Assembly (NCBI GenBank): GCA_017936285.1
Contig: JAGBFU010000064.1
Location: forward strand, 21,830 to 85,829
Reading direction: 5' to 3'
Length of the DNA stretch: 64,000 bases
From: Marinifilaceae bacterium
GTDB lineage: Bacteria; Bacteroidota; Bacteroidia; Bacteroidales; Marinifilaceae
Shown here one piece after another: positions 1 to 7,407 of the stretch (its first letter is position 1; each line of letters opens with the position of its first letter). The position numbers and the translations under genes are program-made. Below the pieces are notes generated by a model. The model had not been told where the DNA came from and did not search any database. It worked only from the letters and a program-made list of their open reading frames with translations.

Positions 1-891
1 AACTACAAACCAATTGCATATCACGTTGATGAGAAGACAGGTTTGGTTGACTATGATGAGATGGAGCGTTTGGCTTTGGAGCATAAACCAAAGATGATTG
101 TATCTGGTGCTTCTGCATATTCACGTGATTGGGATTATAAGAGAATGCGCGAGATTGCCGATAAGGTTGGAGCTTTGTTGATGTACGATATGGCTCACCC
201 TGCAGGTTTGATTGCTGCCGGTCTTTTGAATAACCCATTTGAGTATTGCCATATTGTAACAACTACTACTCACAAGACTCTTCGTGGTCCTCGTGGTGGT
301 ATGATCTTCTTGCCAAAGGATTTCCCAAATCCATGGGGAATTACAACTCCAAAGGGTGAGATTAAGATGATGTCTGCAATTATGAACTCTGCCGTATTCC
401 CTGGCCAGCAGGGTGGACCTCTTGAGCATGTAATTGCATCAAAGGCTGTTGCTTTTGGCGAGGCTTTGACAGATTCATACAAGGAGTATGCTAAGCAGGT
501 ACAGAAGAATGCAGCAGTTATGGCTGCAGAGTTTATCGCTAAGGGTTACTCGGTTGTGTCTGGTGGAACAGACAACCACTGTATGCTTATCGATTTGCGT
601 TCTAAGTTCCCTGAGTTGACAGGTAAGAAGGCTGAGAATACTTTGGTTCTTGCTGATATCACTATCAATAAGAATATGGTTCCATTCGATTCTCGCTCTC
701 CATTCCAAACTTCAGGTATTCGTGTTGGAACTCCAGCAATTACTACCCGTGGTTTGAAGGAGGATGATATGAAGGTTATTGTTGATATGATTGACCGAGT
801 TCTTTCTGATCCTGATAACGAGCAGGTTATTGCTCAGGTTAGAGCAGAGGTTAACGCAATGATGGCTGATAGGCCAATGTTTGCGTGGTAA
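1..891 (+). CDS. glyA: Serine hydroxymethyltransferase, 5'-truncated by window edge
   Basis: Makes glycine and 5,10-methylene-tetrahydrofolate from serine, a PLP enzyme of cytosolic one-carbon metabolism. Frame 1 is open from base 1, so only the C-terminal ~296 residues are visible; the family is usually 415-430 residues, so about 130 N-terminal residues lie outside. The PLP-lysine signature [14 protein letters not shown] is present (Lys in HKT), as is the upstream MYDMAHPAG segment that holds the cofactor-binding Asp and His. The stop codon is followed immediately by a long hairpin repeat, so the nearest conventional terminator is almost 200 nt away. Identification is secure. Confidence 0.97.
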
Positions 892-898
892 CGGCTAC

Positions 899-1062
899 GG
901 AGTATATATTTTTTGAAATGACGCTCACGGCTCAAGTATCTCTACGTCAATTTACCTATAAAACAGAACTCGCTGCTTCGCAGCTCAAACAGCAGTTTTA
1001 TAACGGTAAATTTTCCTTGAATACTAATCGCCTTCCGCTAGTTTTCAAAAAATATATACTCC
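899..1062. repeat. Long hairpin repeat, copy 1 (123-bp core plus paired arms)
   Basis: A core (920-1042) matches 4538-4660 at 121 of 123 positions. It is itself a long imperfect hairpin: AATTTACC and TATAAAAC on the left pair with GTTTTATA and GGTAAATT on the right, and the tip is GCTGC-ttc-GCAGC. Outside the core, 899-918 (GGAGTATATATTTTTTGAAA) is the exact reverse complement of 1043-1062. The outer arm differs from that of copy 2, but each copy is self-complementary. It sits between the glyA stop and the terminator at 1086. A 61-codon ORF across it is not credible as a gene. Confidence 0.9.
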
Positions 1063-1085
1063 TCCGCTAATATAATTTATAGAGA

Positions 1086-1114
1086 GTGTCACAGGTTTCT
1101 GTGGCACTTTTTTT
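1086..1114 (+). terminator. Rho-independent terminator (copy 1 of a duplicated terminator)
   Basis: Stem GTGTCACAG / CTGTGGCAC (one G-U pair), loop GTTT, then seven T. It lies downstream of glyA beyond the hairpin repeat. A 33-nt stretch including it (1083-1115) is repeated exactly at 3126-3158, so the three-gene cassette between them is bracketed by identical terminators. Confidence 0.9.
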
Positions 1115-1152
1115 GATGTTATTATAGTCGATGTCTTGTATTACTGAAATTT

Positions 1153-1755
1153 ATGTCTGAAAATTTTGATAATAATAATAATAATAATAACTTTGCGAAA
1201 ATTGCATGTGTGATGTTAAAGTATTTATATAGAATTTTGTTTGCTTTATCTCTCTTTGTGGGGGTGTTGCTTTTGATTGTAGATTATTTAGATAAACAAG
1301 AGTTAAGAAAGTGTGTTATAGGATGTATTGGACGTCAATTAAATCTTTCAGATTCTTTGGTATTCCTTAATTCATCTGATATCTCTGATATTAGTGACTT
1401 TGATTATAAGATATTTTGTTATATCCCTCCTGGTGAGTGTTTGGGCTGTAAATTGAATATGACAAAATGGAATGATTTTATGAATGAATTTCCAGTAAAT
1501 AATGTTACTTTGGTATTCCTTACGCATTTGGAAAATAAGAATGAAGTTAATAGATATGCTAATCTGCTTTGTTTTAGGTATCCTATAATTGCATATAATG
1601 ATAATAAGATTTATGATAATATAACTTCTATCATGAAGATTGCCAACGGTATAAATGTTTTTCTCTTGAATAAAAATAATTTAGTCGAGTCTATAGGTAA
1701 TCCTTTGTATAACAAAAAGATTAAGGATTTATACATCGACATTATAAAGAATTAA
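1153..1755 (+). CDS. Membrane-anchored thioredoxin-like protein with CxxC, NVEALA cassette
   Basis: 200-residue protein. Residues 7-13 are seven asparagines encoded by an AAT tract (1171-1190). One membrane segment spans about residues 25-44, and the rest is probably periplasmic. A redox-type CLGC motif (C96, C99) follows IPPGE, with predicted alternating strands after it, as in thioredoxin-like folds; overall similarity to TlpA-type proteins is only inferred. Two further cysteines (C54, C58) lie just past the membrane segment. It is the first gene of an AT-rich three-gene unit with an NVEALA peptide and a propeller lipoprotein. A plausible role is disulfide handling of the cysteine-containing peptide, but this is inference. 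Confidence 0.6.
   Translation: MSENFDNNNNNNNFAKIACVMLKYLYRILFALSLFVGVLLLIVDYLDKQELRKCVIGCIGRQLNLSDSLVFLNSSDISDISDFDYKIFCYIPPGECLGCKLNMTKWNDFMNEFPVNNVTLVFLTHLENKNEVNRYANLLCFRYPIIAYNDNKIYDNITSIMKIANGINVFLLNKNNLVESIGNPLYNKKIKDLYIDIIKN
1171..1190 (+). repeat. AAT trinucleotide tract encoding poly-Asn
   Basis: Uninterrupted AAT units at the start of the CxxC protein gene. Length changes by whole units would alter the asparagine run without changing the frame. Confidence 0.9.
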
Positions 1756-1780
1756 TTAACTAAAATTAAAAATAATAACT

Positions 1781-2050
1781 ATGAGCAAGAAGATGAAATT
1801 ATTAGCATTTGTAGTATGTATTGTATTATGTGCTACTATGGTTGTGGCTGTTGTGCTTAAGAGACAACAAGATAGACCATTGTTTGCAGAGAGGAATATC
1901 GAGGCTTTAACCTCTACAGAATCCTACTCAAGTGAGATAAATTCTGATGATTGTTATGTAAAAGATGGTGCTCAATGCTTGGTAATTTATATAACACCTA
2001 ATGGGAATAACGGAGTAATATATTTGAACCAATATCCCAAAGAACCATGA
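1781..2050 (+). CDS. NVEALA-type small exported peptide
   Basis: 89 residues with an N-terminal hydrophobic segment (about residues 6-25), then the family hallmark here in the form NIEALT (residues 39-44, for N-V-E-A-L-A), then a polar tail with two cysteines (C58, C66). NVEALA proteins are small Bacteroidales proteins of unknown function that often sit beside 6-bladed-propeller lipoproteins, as here. The stop overlaps the next start (ATGA at 2047-2050), implying translational coupling to the lipoprotein. The two cysteines and the neighbouring CxxC protein suggest a disulfide-bonded mature peptide. Whether it is a signal, a toxin or structural cannot be told from sequence. Confidence 0.75.
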   Translation: MSKKMKLLAFVVCIVLCATMVVAVVLKRQQDRPLFAERNIEALTSTESYSSEINSDDCYVKDGAQCLVIYITPNGNNGVIYLNQYPKEP

Positions 2051-3093
2051 TCTACCGTAATATGATAAATTGCTTTTTCTTTCTATTGTTGTTATGTGCG
2101 TGTGGTACTGATAATAATGGATTAAGAAATATTGCATTTGAAAATTTGGTTGGAGTACCATCGGGTTGTGACTATATAGTTGACTATCCTCAGGAGATGT
2201 ATGTTATAGACTCATTATTAATATTATGTGATCCTCGCTTAAGTAAAGGTGTGGTAGAAGTGTATGATATTAATACTGGCGATTTTATTCAGGCTCCTCT
2301 TAAAAGAGGACGCGGAGATTTTGAGTTTATGTCGCCATATTTTTTGGGATTCTCTAATAGTTGTGATTCGTTGTATATTTATGATGTAATGCAGAGTAAA
2401 TTGGTAGCTTCAAAAATAATATTAAATAGAGATTCTTTGATTATCAATTCATATAATCAATATGAATCAGATAGGAAGGATATTGTATCTACTAAGTTGG
2501 CTAAGCTTGATAATGGATATATTGTGTCGTTACCATATTTTGCTAAAGATTCAATGTTTGTTCTGTTTGATTCTAGAATGCAGTTTAAGCAGAAATTTGG
2601 TAATTTACCAGTTGAATGGGAAAAAACAGATGAAATTAAATTGTATAACACCTTTGTTGGTGATATAAAAACACATGGCAATAAGGTAATATATGCCTCT
2701 GGAAGATTACCATATGTTGTTTGTTATGATGTTGCGGATGATGGTGCTGTAGTAAAGAGTTGGGAGGTTATTTTGGATGAGTATTCAATATATTTTGAGG
2801 GTGATAAACTAAGATTTTCAAATGATAATCCTCAAACATTTATGTCTGTTCACCCTACTTCTGATAAGATCTTTGTCGTTTACAATGGATATACTACAGA
2901 TGATTGGGCACACGATATTGATAAATCAGTGGAGTATAAGATAATTGCTATTGATTATGAAGGTCAGGTTGTAGGTGCTTATGAGCTTGATTATCCAATC
3001 ATAAAATTATCAGTTTCTCCTAAAGGTAAGGATATGTTTGTTTTTACCACTGTTGATGAGCGAATGGATATCGTAAAATATACAATTAAATAA
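2047..3093 (+). CDS. BF3164-like 6-bladed beta-propeller lipoprotein
   Basis: 348 residues. A lipoprotein signal (hydrophobic LLLLCAC, lipidated Cys at about residue 19) is followed by a long beta-rich domain with repeating blade-like units such as VVEVYDINTG, LYIYDVMQSK, YVVCYDVAD and IIAIDYEGQVVGAYEL. It resembles the TolB-like/BF3164 propeller lipoproteins of Bacteroidales, probably on the outer membrane or periplasm-facing. It overlaps the NVEALA gene by 4 nt and ends 35 bp before an identical copy of the upstream terminator. The ATG at 2047 is chosen for the coupling overlap; the Met at residue 6 is an alternative. The ligand is unknown; binding the NVEALA product is a guess from gene order. 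Confidence 0.7.
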   Translation: MIYRNMINCFFFLLLLCACGTDNNGLRNIAFENLVGVPSGCDYIVDYPQEMYVIDSLLILCDPRLSKGVVEVYDINTGDFIQAPLKRGRGDFEFMSPYFLGFSNSCDSLYIYDVMQSKLVASKIILNRDSLIINSYNQYESDRKDIVSTKLAKLDNGYIVSLPYFAKDSMFVLFDSRMQFKQKFGNLPVEWEKTDEIKLYNTFVGDIKTHGNKVIYASGRLPYVVCYDVADDGAVVKSWEVILDEYSIYFEGDKLRFSNDNPQTFMSVHPTSDKIFVVYNGYTTDDWAHDIDKSVEYKIIAIDYEGQVVGAYELDYPIIKLSVSPKGKDMFVFTTVDERMDIVKYTIK

Positions 3094-3128
3094 GATTTTG
3101 CATTGAACGTTTATAAATAAACCCTAGA

Positions 3129-3157
3129 GTGTCACAGGTTTCTGTGGCACTTTTTTT
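3129..3157 (+). terminator. Rho-independent terminator (copy 2 of the duplicated terminator)
   Basis: Identical stem, loop and T-run to 1086-1114. Here it ends the NVEALA-propeller operon, 35 bp after its last stop codon. Confidence 0.9.
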
Positions 3158-3247
3158 GTGCATTTATATAAATTTAAAATAAACATAAAATATACAAAGT
3201 AAAATCACTATCTTTGTACTGTGAATAATGTATATGCAATAAGCTAT

Positions 3248-3261
3248 AATAATGCATTATT
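3248..3261. promoter_or_regulatory. 14-bp perfect palindrome upstream of DUF4160 promoter
   Basis: AATAATGCATTATT is a perfect palindrome about 25 bp upstream of the -33 element of the next operon. It may be a second regulator site or just AT-rich chance symmetry. Confidence 0.35.
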
Positions 3262-3284
3262 GAAATAAAATAAGTGTCTAACCA

Positions 3285-3315
3285 TTGTAGGTAATTATTT
3301 TATTACCTATTTTTG
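3285..3315 (+). promoter_or_regulatory. Promoter with embedded operator-like palindrome
   Basis: TTG at 3285-3287 and TATTTTTG at 3308-3315 with a 20-nt spacer match the Bacteroidota -33/-7 promoter. An inverted repeat, TAGGTAAT (3288-3295) and ATTACCTA (3302-3309), fills the spacer and overlaps the -7 box. A protein bound there would block polymerase. The second gene of the operon encodes a helix-turn-helix, so autorepression is likely. Confidence 0.7.
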
Positions 3316-3335
3316 CAAAGTGAAAGGGTATTATT

Positions 3336-3575
3336 ATGCCAACAATTTTTATCCTTTTCGGATTTAGATTTTTATTTTACGCCAATGACCATGAACCAAT
3401 CCATGTTCATGTCGTGAAGGGTAAAATTCGTGCCAAGTTTACAATTAGTCCGGTTGAATTAGTTGAAAATGATGGTTTGAAAGCTTCTGAAATTAAGATG
3501 GTAGAGTCGGTAATAGAGGAGAATGTTGAAGTTATTTCGGAGCATTGGAATAAATTTTTTAATAACAATACATAA
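3336..3575 (+). CDS. DUF4160 domain protein (putative toxin-antitoxin partner)
   Basis: 79 residues, the usual length for DUF4160. It starts MPTIFILFGFRFLFYANDHEP and carries the histidine cluster H-E-P-I-H-V-H near residues 19-25 that marks the family. It sits 5 bp before a DUF2442 gene; such pairs recur in bacteria and are often listed as candidate toxin-antitoxin modules, although biochemistry is lacking. Transcription would start from the palindrome-bearing promoter at 3285-3315. The Met at 3336 is the only sensible start. Confidence 0.85.
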   Translation: MPTIFILFGFRFLFYANDHEPIHVHVVKGKIRAKFTISPVELVENDGLKASEIKMVESVIEENVEVISEHWNKFFNNNT

Positions 3576-3580
3576 TATCG

Positions 3581-3982
3581 ATGATAGATATAGATAAGGT
3601 ATGGATTACTGAAACGGCAGTGTATATTAGGACTGTTGATGGCAGGGAAGCGTGTGAAAATTTCATGGATTATCCACGTTTAAAGTATGCTACGCAATCG
3701 CAACGCGAAAATTATACTGTTGATTCATTTGGAATTCATTGGGAAGATATTGATGAGGATTTAAGTTTTGAAGGTTTTTTTAAAACTAAGAACCCTTCTC
3801 AATTATATGAGTTATTTATGTCACATCCCGAGATTAATGCTTCTGCAGTTGCACGCAGAATAGGTATATCACAATCTCTATTGGCTCAATATATAAGTGG
3901 TAGTAAGCGTCCTTCTAAGGAACGTTTAGAATTAATCAAAGATGAGATTAGATTAATAGGTAAAGAGTTGCTTTCGATATAG
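3581..3982 (+). CDS. DUF2442 domain fused to helix-turn-helix, putative antitoxin
   Basis: 133 residues. The N-terminal ~75 residues are DUF2442-like (IDKVWITETAVYIRTVDGRE, then FGIHWEDIDEDLSFEG). Residues ~85-125 form a helix-turn-helix (AVARRIGISQSLLAQYISG-SKRPS) resembling lambda-repressor/XRE types. The fusion makes it the natural DNA-binding partner of a toxin-antitoxin-like pair and the candidate repressor acting on the palindrome at 3288-3309. It ends 15 bp from the convergent NUDIX gene. Confidence 0.8.
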   Translation: MIDIDKVWITETAVYIRTVDGREACENFMDYPRLKYATQSQRENYTVDSFGIHWEDIDEDLSFEGFFKTKNPSQLYELFMSHPEINASAVARRIGISQSLLAQYISGSKRPSKERLELIKDEIRLIGKELLSI

Positions 3983-3997
3983 TTTCTACTTTTTTTA

Positions 3998-4492
3998 TTA
4001 GATTGTTTTTAGGAGGGTAAGGTATTCGTGTTGGAAGTTGGGGGTGAGGGTGTTGGTGCCGATGGCAGCCTCGATTTTCTCTTTGCTCCAGAATTTGCCC
4101 TCGTCAACTTCGTCGTTGTCAATTGTGAATGTGCCGTATTCCCTGCAGATGAATACGTTTATGAATTCGCGTTCAGTTTTTGATTCCCAAAGGTAGGTTG
4201 CAAGCAGTTCTGCCTTGAATTGTGTCAATCCAAGTTCTTCCATTGTTTCGCGATGAAGAGCAGTGAGTGTGTCTTCGCCATAGCTGATGTGGCCTCCTAC
4301 TGCGGTGTCCCAGTATCCCGGTAGCAGTTTTTTGGTCATGCTGCGTTTTTGTAGGAATATTTCGCCTTTGGCGTTTATCAGATGTAGGTGTACGACAGGG
4401 TGGAGTAGTTTGCTTCCGCTGTGGCATTCGCTTCTTGTTGCTTTGCCTATTGTCTCTCCTTTTTCATTTACTATTGGCAAAATCTCTTCCAT
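3998..4492 (-). CDS. NUDIX hydrolase
   Basis: 164 residues. The Nudix box is complete at residues 67-89: G-x5-E-x7-RE then EELG (GGHISYGEDTLTALHRETMEELGL). It hydrolyses a nucleoside-diphosphate-linked substrate that cannot be named; the layout with a short N-terminal strand and HLHLIN before the box resembles YfcD/IPP-isomerase-like proteins. An in-frame extension to 4546 would take the start into the hairpin repeat and adds residues unlike the family, so the ATG at 4490-4492 is preferred. The repeat therefore occupies the region where its promoter should lie. Confidence 0.85.
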   Translation of the reverse strand: MEEILPIVNEKGETIGKATRSECHSGSKLLHPVVHLHLINAKGEIFLQKRSMTKKLLPGYWDTAVGGHISYGEDTLTALHRETMEELGLTQFKAELLATYLWESKTEREFINVFICREYGTFTIDNDEVDEGKFWSKEKIEAAIGTNTLTPNFQHEYLTLLKTI

Positions 4493-4511
4493 TGCTTTTA
4501 TCTCAGTATTG

Positions 4512-4686
4512 GATATGTGTATATGTTTTACGAGACGGACGCTCACGGCTTAAGTATCTCTACGTCAATTTACCTATAAAACAGAACTCGCTGCTTCGCA
4601 GCTCAGACAGCAGTTTTATAACGGTAAATTTTCCTTGAATACTAATCGCCTTCCGCTAGTGTCTCTTTAAAACATATACACATATC
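4512..4686. repeat. Long hairpin repeat, copy 2
   Basis: The core 4538-4660 is 121/123 identical to 920-1042. The outer arms 4512-4529 (GATATGTGTATATGTTTT) and 4669-4686 are exact reverse complements, and GAGAC/GTCTC next to them also pair. The arm sequence differs from copy 1 although both share a GTATAT-rich start, so pairing is kept while sequence drifts. It lies between the NUDIX start and the gapA terminator. Confidence 0.9.
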
Positions 4687-4698
4687 AATCGGGTAAAA

Positions 4699-4727
4699 TG
4701 TATGTTTTAAGAGACGGACGCTTACGG
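4699..4727. repeat. Partial third copy of hairpin repeat left end
   Basis: ATGTATGTTTTAAGAGACGG then ACGCTTACGG resembles the left end of copy 2 (arm plus GACGGACGCTCACGG). The rest of the element is absent, so this is a remnant or a new arm. Confidence 0.65.
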
Positions 4728-4741
4728 TTTTATGTGTGGGG

Positions 4742-4772
4742 TAAAAATAAGGCTGACCGATTGGCCAGCCTT
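4742..4772 (-). terminator. Terminator of gapA
   Basis: Stem AAGGCTGACC / GGCCAGCCTT with loop GATT and one mismatch. On the minus strand it is followed by TTATTTTT. It lies 25 bp past the gapA stop codon. Confidence 0.85.
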
Positions 4773-4797
4773 ATGAGTTTATGACTTAAACGTTAAA

Positions 4798-5814
<1,017 letters not shown>

Positions 5815-5862
5815 TTATCCGTTTAAAAGGTTAATGAATCTATAATCTGTTTTTTTGCAGTC

Positions 5863-5893
5863 CAAAATTATAAAAACTCTTTCTTATCCACAA
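5863..5893 (-). promoter_or_regulatory. gapA promoter
   Basis: On the minus strand TTG (5891-5893) is followed by a 20-nt spacer and TAATTTTG (5863-5870), an exact Bacteroidota -33/-7 arrangement about 55 nt before the gapA start. Confidence 0.75.
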
Positions 5894-5964
5894 TATTAGC
5901 CCCTTTTTTTTTCAAAAAATCAACTCAAACGATTTCAGAAAGTGTAATCATTTGGATAATTCAG

Positions 5965-7407
5965 TTAATTTTTTCGTATCAAGAGAAGTTTATCTCCTGA
6001 TTCAAGTTCAAGACTTCCATTGGGAATCAGGAAATCGTTGCCTCGTTTTACAAGCATTACAAGGGTCCCCTCGGGTAGTTGAATCTCTTTAAGGGTATTG
6101 CCGTTGACGAGCATCTCCTCATTTAATACAATATCTTTAAGGTTTGTGTCAATCTCCTCGGGAAGCTCAACTCCGAAATCATTGCCCTCTTTCTTCTGCT
6201 TGGTTGCCAAACGTAGTTTGCGGGCAACCCAGGGGATTGTAGAACCTTGAATTACAAGCGATAGAATTGTTATGAAGAATACTACATTAAAAATCAGGTT
6301 AGCTCCCTCAATCTTTGCAACTACTGGGTATGTGGCAAAGATAATAGGTACTGCTCCACGTAATCCCACCCACGATACAAAGTGTTTGGAGCGTGCATTC
6401 ATTTTGCGGAATGGCAGCAGGCATAACCATACGGTTACAGGACGTGCCACAAGAATCATAAATATTCCGATTAATGATGCAATAAGTGCAATGCCAAGTA
6501 ATTCACGTGGATTAACCAAAAGTCCCAGGGCAAGGAACATTATAATTTGGAATAGCCATGTCATTCCATCCATGAATGTAGCAATTTCGCGTTTGTTTGT
6601 GATTCTTGCATTGCCAACCATAATACCGGCAATATATACTGCCAGGTAGCCGTTTCCATGAATCATATCGCTTATCGAGAAGATAAAGAATACGAAACTC
6701 AGAAGCATAATGGAGTATAGTGATGGATTTGGCAGGGTAATTTTGTTGATTACTATAACAGCCAATTTACCCAGCAGGAATCCGGCAGCTGCACCGACAA
6801 TGAATTGTACCAGAAACGAACCTATAATCTCGGCAACACCCAATTCGGACGATTGAATGAATTGGATAAGTACAATGGTCAGCATATATGCCATAGGGTC
6901 GTTACTACCGCTCTCTAACTCAAGCATTGGGCGTAGATTGTGCTTCAGGTGCATTTTATGTGAACGTAAAATGTTGAACACCGATGCCGAGTCGGTAGAT
7001 GACATTGTTGCTGCTAATAGCAGTGCGGTAGTGAGCGGAAGAGCAATCCCTGAGTTAGGAATGGTTTTGCCTATCCAGTATATAAACAGACCGGTAAAAA
7101 GTGTTGTGAGTACAACTCCTAATGTGGAGAGGATAATTCCCTGCGACATAACGGGTCTGATCTCGTTGTATTTGGTGTCCATCCCTCCTGAAAATAGGAT
7201 AATTCCCAGGGCAATCATTCCTATAAATTGGGCATCCTCAACGTTGTTGAATTGTAATCCAAAACCGTCGCTTCCAAATATCATTCCTACCACTAAGAAG
7301 ATAAGAAGGGTGGGCATTCCGAATTTATATCCCGTTCTGCTGACTGTTATACTTACGAAAAGAAGTATCGAAAAGATTAAAAGACTATTCTCGGCTGTAA
7401 ATATCAT
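5965..7407 (-). CDS. Potassium/proton antiporter, CPA1 family with TrkA-C domain
   Basis: 480 residues. About twelve hydrophobic segments occupy residues 5-395. The SSTDSASVF segment and LRGAVPI are CPA1 exchanger signatures. The C-terminal ~75 residues form a TrkA-C (RCK_C) domain ending LESGDKLLLIRKN, which usually binds a ligand and gates transport. The architecture matches NhaP2/CvrA-type K+/H+ antiporters of the inner membrane. It is divergent from the CapA-like lipoprotein gene. Ion specificity is inferred from the family. Confidence 0.88.
   Translation of the reverse strand: MIFTAENSLLIFSILLFVSITVSRTGYKFGMPTLLIFLVVGMIFGSDGFGLQFNNVEDAQFIGMIALGIILFSGGMDTKYNEIRPVMSQGIILSTLGVVLTTLFTGLFIYWIGKTIPNSGIALPLTTALLLAATMSSTDSASVFNILRSHKMHLKHNLRPMLELESGSNDPMAYMLTIVLIQFIQSSELGVAEIIGSFLVQFIVGAAAGFLLGKLAVIVINKITLPNPSLYSIMLLSFVFFIFSISDMIHGNGYLAVYIAGIMVGNARITNKREIATFMDGMTWLFQIIMFLALGLLVNPRELLGIALIASLIGIFMILVARPVTVWLCLLPFRKMNARSKHFVSWVGLRGAVPIIFATYPVVAKIEGANLIFNVVFFITILSLVIQGSTIPWVARKLRLATKQKKEGNDFGVELPEEIDTNLKDIVLNEEMLVNGNTLKEIQLPEGTLVMLVKRGNDFLIPNGSLELESGDKLLLIRKN

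What the first reader, a model, noticed from the sequence alone, without database searches (positions are those of the whole stretch)
1083..3158. NVEALA peptide cassette bracketed by identical terminators
A CxxC membrane protein, an NVEALA-type small peptide with two cysteines, and a propeller lipoprotein (coupled by an ATGA overlap) form an AT-rich unit. The 33-nt terminator on its left (1083-1115) is repeated exactly on its right (3126-3158), unlike any other terminator pair here. This suggests that the cassette arrived or was duplicated as a block by recombination between terminator copies. Inference: the three proteins make and sense or bind a disulfide-bonded exported peptide, a system whose function is not established.
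Basis: partly seen in the sequence, partly recalled or inferred. Interest (0 to 1): 0.72.

Follow-up and report, generated by a model that had tools for sequence, protein, structure and literature searches.

The report
Matched peptide–propeller pairs in Bacteroidales
The three-gene set encodes a small cysteine-containing peptide that is likely exported and disulfide-bonded with help from its thioredoxin-like neighbour and would be recognised by its own propeller lipoprotein; in related bacteria the variable tails of such peptides are similar in step with the propeller encoded next to them, which points to a likely undescribed peptide-recognition system.

Summary
A thioredoxin-like CxxC membrane protein (C), an NVEALA peptide (N) and a propeller lipoprotein (P, ATGA overlap) lie between two identical 33-nt terminators, the only two in the assembly. 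The terminator story is local: the left copy is glyA's own; the sister species has one copy, with P in the same slot behind a different gene and another terminator after it. P is mosaic. The co-occurrence generalises: of 71 N ORFs collected in the order, 54 are followed directly by P and 31 have a C relative within four genes. The 6 C genes found in the two genus genomes all lie with a peptide and P. CxxC is kept in 26 of 26 aligned C proteins. Tail cysteine counts are even in 51 of 61 N. Tail similarity follows the adjacent propeller (r 0.495 between genomes; within-genome shuffles mean 0.136, p 0.0002); leader similarity does not (p 0.40). I read this as a secreted peptide system with cognate propeller partners. 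Export, disulfide state and binding are inferred. My searches of the held library found no paper on it.

The parts
1083..1115 (+). Left terminator, glyA's own (exact twin of 3126-3158)
   Evidence: conserved with its upstream flank after glyA in the sister species at L007:452-487, loop variant
1165..1195 (+). Predicted Bacteroidetes-type promoter, TTTG - 19 nt (TAA)n spacer - TAACTTTG
   Evidence: consensus recalled, function not tested
1213..1755 (+). C: membrane-anchored thioredoxin-fold protein with CxxC (listed ORF 1153-1755)
   Evidence: CxxC kept in 26 of 26; predicted fold; start at 1213 inferred from the promoter
1781..2050 (+). N: NVEALA peptide precursor, 89 aa, two cysteines in the tail
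   Evidence: PF14055 29.7 bits, cut-off 27
2047..3093 (+). P: beta-propeller lipoprotein, 348 aa, ATGA overlap with N
   Evidence: the sister-species protein P0003 passes TolB_like
2092..2235 (+). 144-nt block of P identical to the sister species inside an otherwise diverged gene
3126..3158 (+). Right terminator, exact 33-nt copy, closes the C-N-P unit
   Evidence: absent after P in the sister species

Best explanation
The unit is one of three C, N and P sets in this genome assembly and likely makes an exported disulfide-bonded peptide (N) whose variable tail would be recognised by the propeller lipoprotein (P) encoded next to it. Steps: N is made with a hydrophobic leader ending in N-x-E-A-x-A (A-L-T in the window); this looks like a signal-peptidase I site, so cleavage there is predicted. 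C, anchored in the membrane, is predicted to form or reshuffle the disulfide of the tail. P, predicted to be translated in step with N through the ATGA overlap, is predicted to bind its own tail as receptor or immunity partner. Shown: gene association, conserved CxxC, mostly even cysteine counts, constraint on one orthologous tail, and tail-to-own-propeller co-variation. Not shown: secretion, cleavage, disulfides, binding, and what the peptide does to a cell. I lean to cell-cell recognition or competition. The twin terminator most likely reflects a local exchange at the right edge that also brought in the DUF4160/DUF2442 pair.
For: Of 71 N ORFs, the next downstream gene is P in 54, P is within two genes in 64 and within four same-strand genes on either side in 68; C is within four in 31 (ORFs under 60 aa skipped). 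P makes up 106 of the 651 ORFs called there. C relatives of 50 bits or more occur in 20 of 26 genomes with a Pfam NVEALA match and in 10 of the other 367 (Fisher p 3e-21). Opening those 10 found N-like ORFs by my HMM in 4 and peptide-like ORFs by eye in 2 more. In the two genus genomes 6 of 6 C copies lie with a peptide ORF and P. Tail cysteines are even in 51 of 61 (p 1e-7 treating homologs as independent). A-x-A occurs in 52 of 69 and a looser site in 65 of 69. Tail-P correlation is 0.495 between genomes against 0.136 mean in within-genome shuffles, p 0.0002, while the leader gives p 0.40; it stays positive with Cys masked or similar propellers removed. The orthologous peptide L134/L168 has a tail 90% and a leader 52% identical in amino acids, with 34 synonymous-only against 8 nonsynonymous codons in the tail. 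Several loci add an S26 signal peptidase (PF10502; S47 and K121 invariant in 4 of 4 aligned, catalytic role recalled). Precedent: bacteroidetocin loci carry a thiol oxidoreductase, and the authors write that Bacteroides lack the general machinery for disulfide formation so that it likely forms the peptide's disulfides (PMC6671954, passages).
Against: C is not within four genes of 40 of 71 N (some lie at contig ends), so it is not obligatory. No peptide was seen beside C in 4 of the 10 genomes opened (G114, G259, G277, G343), and C of G114 reads CASN instead of CxxC. The alignment used to find C came from NVEALA loci, which inflates the genome association. Several peptides beside C rest on my own HMM or on eye: of 10 scanned with Pfam none reached the NVEALA cut-off, 4 gave a weaker match (24.5, 17.1, 13.5 and 12.2 bits against 27) and 6 none. 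10 of 61 tails have odd cysteine counts. The window's N ends its motif in A-L-T, its P is below the Pfam propeller cut-offs and its C lacks the lipobox of its relatives. The window tail has no close relative in the co-variation set. C and N are not kept in the sister species' slot.
Confidence: 0.58

Rival explanations
1. Toxin and immunity: the mature peptide would kill or inhibit neighbours and the propeller lipoprotein would protect the producer (a specific form of the main reading).
For: Variable tails behind a shared leader, P next to N in 54 of 71, arrays of paralogs, a leader kept with a changed tail, tail-P matching.
Against: No killing data; some arrays hold more P than N (L070: seven P, two N); for the described Bacteroidales peptide toxins the authors found no obvious immunity protein (PMC6671954, passages).
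Confidence: 0.3
2. Peptide signalling: the peptide is a pheromone sensed through its propeller lipoprotein.
For: Same matching evidence; G001 C41 has a response-regulator-like gene (named by eye) after the cluster (L169_7).
Against: None of the six neighbour clusters that recur in two or more stretches looked like a regulator or kinase (two of the six not identified).
Confidence: 0.22
3. Cell-envelope assembly: the peptide is a small structural or glycosylated surface part and P a scaffold.
For: Wzy_C/O-antigen-ligase-like ORFs in 14 and 650-aa-type lipoproteins with a conserved Cys and His in 17 of 70 stretches scanned, some overlapping.
Against: Does not by itself predict that tails track their own propeller while leaders do not.
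Confidence: 0.15
4. One reading: a block inserted or duplicated through recombination between terminator copies.
For: Exact 33-nt direct repeat at both edges, only two copies in the assembly, low GC.
Against: P sits in the same slot of the sister species with one terminator copy and other DNA on both sides; no general terminator bracketing in other NVEALA stretches; 33 nt is short for homologous recombination (recalled).
Confidence: 0.15

Closest known systems
Bacteroidetocins (anti-Bacteroidales peptide toxins; PMC6671954, passages seen)
   Same: Small cysteine-bearing peptide with a leader and a co-encoded thiol oxidoreductase in Bacteroidales.
   Different: Those have a leader cut after a double glycine, a peptidase/transporter gene and no obvious immunity protein; here the leader is a membrane anchor ending in N-x-E-A-x-A, the C-N-P unit holds no transporter, and a propeller lipoprotein is co-encoded.
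Pfam PF14055 NVEALA protein family
   Same: The window peptide passes the family cut-off.
   Different: The library entry names no function; the pairing with own propellers and CxxC proteins is what is added here.
Polymorphic toxin systems (PMC3482391, search listing and start of abstract only)
   Same: Shared front part, variable end, recombination with cassettes; partner encoded next door (the last point recalled).
   Different: Those are proteins with C-terminal toxin domains; here a short cysteine-bearing tail varies with a propeller lipoprotein.
TlpA/ResA-like thiol-disulfide oxidoreductases
   Same: Predicted thioredoxin fold with CxxC; Foldseek hits include FetE, ResA and two Bacteroides oxidoreductases.
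   Different: Below the Pfam AhpC-TSA cut-off (17.7 against 26); tied to peptide loci, and two relatives scanned carry a DUF1573 domain behind it.

Membership tests
NVEALA peptides (PF14055) | Score over the curated cut-off | tested here: met
   29.7 bits against 27
NVEALA peptides (PF14055) | N-x-E-A-x-A motif after a hydrophobic leader | tested here: inconclusive
   The window reads NIEALT: N, E and A at -3 are met, the last A is T, as in 3 of 69 aligned
TolB-like / 6-bladed propeller lipoproteins (PF15869, PF17170) | Score over the curated cut-off | tested here: not met
   Window P has no such hit; P0003, 71-72% identical, passes PF15869 with 35.2 against 29.2
TolB-like / 6-bladed propeller lipoproteins (PF15869, PF17170) | Beta-propeller fold | tested here: met
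   By prediction only: model pLDDT 78, pTM 0.77; Foldseek hits NHL propellers, BF0058 and DUF4221; the profile hits NHL domains. Blade number not settled.
TlpA/ResA-like thioredoxin-fold oxidoreductases | CxxC active site in a thioredoxin fold | tested here: met
   C96/C99 invariant in 26 of 26; by prediction, model pLDDT 88, fold hits
TlpA/ResA-like thioredoxin-fold oxidoreductases | Redox activity on a peptide | not testable with these tools
   Needs protein
Bacteroidetocins | Leader ending in double glycine | tested here: not met
   The translated N has no GG
Bacteroidetocins | Peptidase/transporter gene in the operon | tested here: not met
   The unit between the terminators holds only C, N and P

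The most novel reading that the evidence does not exclude
Bacteroidales carry an undescribed, order-wide recognition system in which a shared membrane leader launches a variable disulfide-bonded peptide tail, each tail matched to its own propeller lipoprotein, matured by a dedicated thiol oxidoreductase and, in fuller loci, by a signal peptidase, a Cys-His lipoprotein and an O-antigen-ligase-like enzyme, with tails and propellers exchanged by recombination at the conserved leader and at the conserved 5' end of the propeller gene.
Probability: 0.4. Interest if true: 0.85.

Novelty: new variant of a known kind. Interest (0 to 1): 0.64.

Why it matters
It would give a testable job to families that the libraries list without a function (NVEALA peptides, the TolB_like/DUF5128 propeller lipoproteins, DUF1573-linked thioredoxin-like lipoproteins). 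The tail-to-propeller matching predicts which peptide binds which partner, so one binding assay with own and foreign pairs could decide whether these bacteria use a peptide recognition or competition system.

Tried and rejected
Terminator stem as a mobile or repeated element: 2 copies in G000, 1 in G001, none in the other 50 of 52 family genomes searched; no exact match in viral contigs. Cassette on plasmids or viruses: no match of the segment in the plasmid collection, no propeller relative confirmed in viral contigs. RNA families in 1-6000 at gathering score: none. More copies by name: the one genome-contig scan returned only SUWY01000020.1 (38,625 bases, the contig length of G001 C4). P0002's genomic context could not be reached, so an assembly chimera cannot be excluded for it. 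Sequence search of P alone in the PDB gave two weak hits to ribosomal proteins, E 0.23 and 0.32. Papers: NVEALA 0; PF14055 five Plasmodium-type papers (listing); DUF4934/BF3164/DUF5128 one paper on Bacteroidetes signatures (listing); other combinations nothing on the system in the listings. The RiPP-mining paper PMC10352776 holds none of 'propeller', 'thioredoxin', 'signal peptidase' (find).

Rows dropped: three Pfam NVEALA places were not fetched (G108 C30, G129 C16, G129 C99). In three fetched NVEALA stretches my calls gave no N (L083, L087, L089). 26 of 28 C ORFs were aligned (one fragment and one identical copy left out). Tail cysteine counts used 61 of 71 N ORFs (motif found and at least 62 aa), the motif count 69 of 71, the correlation tests 50 N-P pairs from 19 genomes. 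each report 393 genomes; I take them as the same draw. Genes were called by a simple script of my own, so starts are rough; in L134 it chose a wrong frame for the peptide, which I read by eye.

Full report
What is there. Between glyA and a NUDIX gene with gapA behind it (both named by eye) lie C (thioredoxin-like, CxxC), N (89-aa NVEALA peptide) and P (propeller lipoprotein), with ATGA joining N and P. N passes PF14055. The 33-nt terminators at both edges are exact twins and the only two places of that pattern in the 1.98-Mb, 86-contig, 82%-complete assembly. The segment is more AT-rich than any of 124 sampled 2-kb windows. The start of C should probably move to 1213: the 5' poly-Asn codons are the (TAA)n spacer of a promoter of the Bacteroidetes type (consensus recalled; 21 such motif pairs on the + strand of the window, so the match alone is weak). 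A pure triplet spacer could vary in length, but I had no second strain to test that.

The sister species. G001 is the only other genome of the genus held; its contig length equals that of SUWY01000020.1, a 'Bacteroidales bacterium' MAG. It has the same slot. glyA and its terminator are conserved (glyA end 96% over 427 nt; terminator with its upstream flank 96.9% over 65 columns), then a CarbopepD_reg protein stands where C and N are in the window, then P at 71% identity, then a different terminator, then NUDIX; the DUF4160 and DUF2442-HTH genes are missing. So the left terminator belongs to glyA and the right copy is extra, without the left copy's upstream flank. Both sides of P differ between the species, so the bracketed block is not one moving unit relative to G001. 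The extra copy and the DUF4160/DUF2442 pair are absent together, which suggests, without proof, one event at the right edge.

Mosaic genes. P of the two species shares a 144-nt identical block (2092-2235); the 50-column steps after it are 56-88% identical and the first step, in the signal peptide, 32%. A third protein, P0002 (18 member sequences, 2 contigs), is window-like in columns 67-232 (98.8-100%) and G001-like in columns 1-22 (95.5%) and 237-351 (99.1%). In another cluster a peptide leader with 80 nt upstream is 93% identical over 220 nt between G000 C67 and G001 C41, and no similarity was found in the tail (the G000 copy looks frameshifted). In a third, orthologous peptide (L134/L168) the tail is 90% and the leader 52% identical, with 34 synonymous-only and 8 nonsynonymous codon differences in the tail, so the tail appears to be the constrained product.

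Census. PF14055 was found in 26 of 393 order genomes at E 0.001, over the cut-off in 22. I fetched stretches for all but three places, called genes and built iterated HMMs for N, P and C. Of 71 N ORFs, P follows directly in 54, within two genes in 64, and lies within four same-strand genes in 68; C lies within four in 31, and each of those 31 also has P. C relatives keep CxxC in 26 of 26 aligned. Searching 393 order genomes with the C alignment gave 37 genomes at E 0.001; at 50 bits or more, 20 of the 26 NVEALA genomes and 10 of the other 367 (Fisher p 3e-21; the alignment came from NVEALA loci, so this is inflated). Opening the 10: N by my HMM in 4 (G068, G110, G117, G197), peptide-like ORFs by eye in 2 (G180, G221), none seen in 4 (G114, G259, G277, G343). 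In the two genus genomes the 6 C copies found each have a peptide ORF and P beside them: window, L134, L135, L168, L169, L170. Of the peptides there, the window's passes PF14055, that of L169 is below its cut-off, those of L135, L168 and L170 have no NVEALA match and rest on my HMM (E 4e-6 to 6e-5 in small sets), and that of L134 was read by eye. Further ORF types recur in the 70 stretches scanned, some of which overlap: S26 signal peptidase in 16, a 650-aa-type lipoprotein with conserved Cys and His in 17, Wzy_C proteins in 14; the G000 S26 gene (C43) is not beside such a unit.

The peptide. Leaders end in N-x-E-A-x-A: N 66, E 66, A at -3 61, A at -1 60 of 69; A-x-A in 52, a looser signal-peptidase I pattern (recalled) in 65. 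Tail cysteines: 2 in 20, 3 in 4, 4 in 24, 5 in 6, 6 in 7 of 61, even in 51 (p 1e-7 treating homologs as independent).

Matching test. For 50 N-P pairs from 19 genomes, similarity of tails correlates with similarity of the adjacent propellers (r 0.54; partial on leader 0.52; p 0.0002). Between genomes only 0.495, with Cys masked 0.37, without propeller pairs of similarity 0.30 or more 0.29, by ranks 0.27, each at p 0.0003, the floor of 3000 permutations. When N-P assignments are shuffled within each genome (43 of 50 pairs can move) the mean is 0.136, the maximum 0.405 and p 0.0002; the leader gives 0.121 against 0.114, p 0.40. Shuffling within genomes controls for species descent, but not for inheritance of whole N-P pairs as units, which alone would also give a correlation. 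The result therefore shows that tail and propeller travel and diverge together while the leader does not; binding is the inference I draw.

Structures. C: AlphaFold2 model pLDDT 88 with a long N-terminal helix and a thioredoxin fold; PDB neighbours Bcp1, FetE, ResA and two Bacteroides oxidoreductases. P: pLDDT 78, a beta-propeller; neighbours NHL domains, BF0058 (4raa) and DUF4221 (3s9j).

Known kinds. Bacteroidetocins are the nearest described system: they too come with a thiol oxidoreductase gene; the passages say that deleting any of three genes of the region weakens activity (I take the oxidoreductase to be one of them) and that Bacteroides lack the general machinery for disulfide formation (PMC6671954, passages). 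They differ in leader, transporter and absence of an obvious immunity partner. I found no paper on NVEALA peptides or their propellers in the held library. A table of an iron-response study lists a B. thetaiotaomicron O-antigen ligase (BT0662) and 6-bladed propeller (BT0664) near each other (PMC10434189, passages), a lead only.

Verdict. The best reading is a secreted peptide with a cognate propeller partner and an associated oxidoreductase.

Noticed in passing
window 909-1052 and 4538-4660: A 123-nt repeat (three copies in the assembly) contains a long hairpin (by eye); at 909-1052 it is absent from G001, where a palindrome GGAGTATATACTCC stands instead. By eye each of the three copies has its own place-specific inverted arms. 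G001 has tandem copies (178-nt period) beside the NUDIX gene. It looks like a small mobile or expanding palindromic element.
   Followed up: partly
window 1165-1195: The predicted promoter of the unit has a pure (TAA)n spacer of 19 nt, a candidate for expression change by repeat slippage.
   Followed up: partly
window 3336-3982: DUF4160 gene followed by a DUF2442-HTH gene, a toxin-antitoxin-like pair (weak NCBIfam DhiT match, 33.8 bits against cut-off 100), missing in the G001 slot.
   Followed up: no
L070 (G000 C67:22000-33784): Array of seven propeller genes with two NVEALA peptides; the first peptide gene looks frameshifted, a cysteine-rich stretch continuing in another frame.
   Followed up: partly
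L169 (G001 C41): N-P-P-C cluster continues with a MauE/DoxX-like membrane protein and a response-regulator-like gene (both named by eye) and a 652-aa Cys-His-type lipoprotein; a second N-P pair lies on the other strand.
   Followed up: no
L079 (G439 C19): A block with C and N is repeated about 6 kb apart; the first 195 residues shown of the two C proteins are identical.
   Followed up: no
L063 (G308 C108): Successive N-P-C units share a 41-nt identical terminator-like hairpin and similar C gene ends, a sign of unit duplication or conversion.
   Followed up: no
L146 (G221 C144): Two 62-63-aa signal-peptide-like ORFs, each with one close pair of cysteines in the tail and no NVEALA motif, lie near a P-C pair, perhaps an NVEALA-free version.
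   Followed up: no
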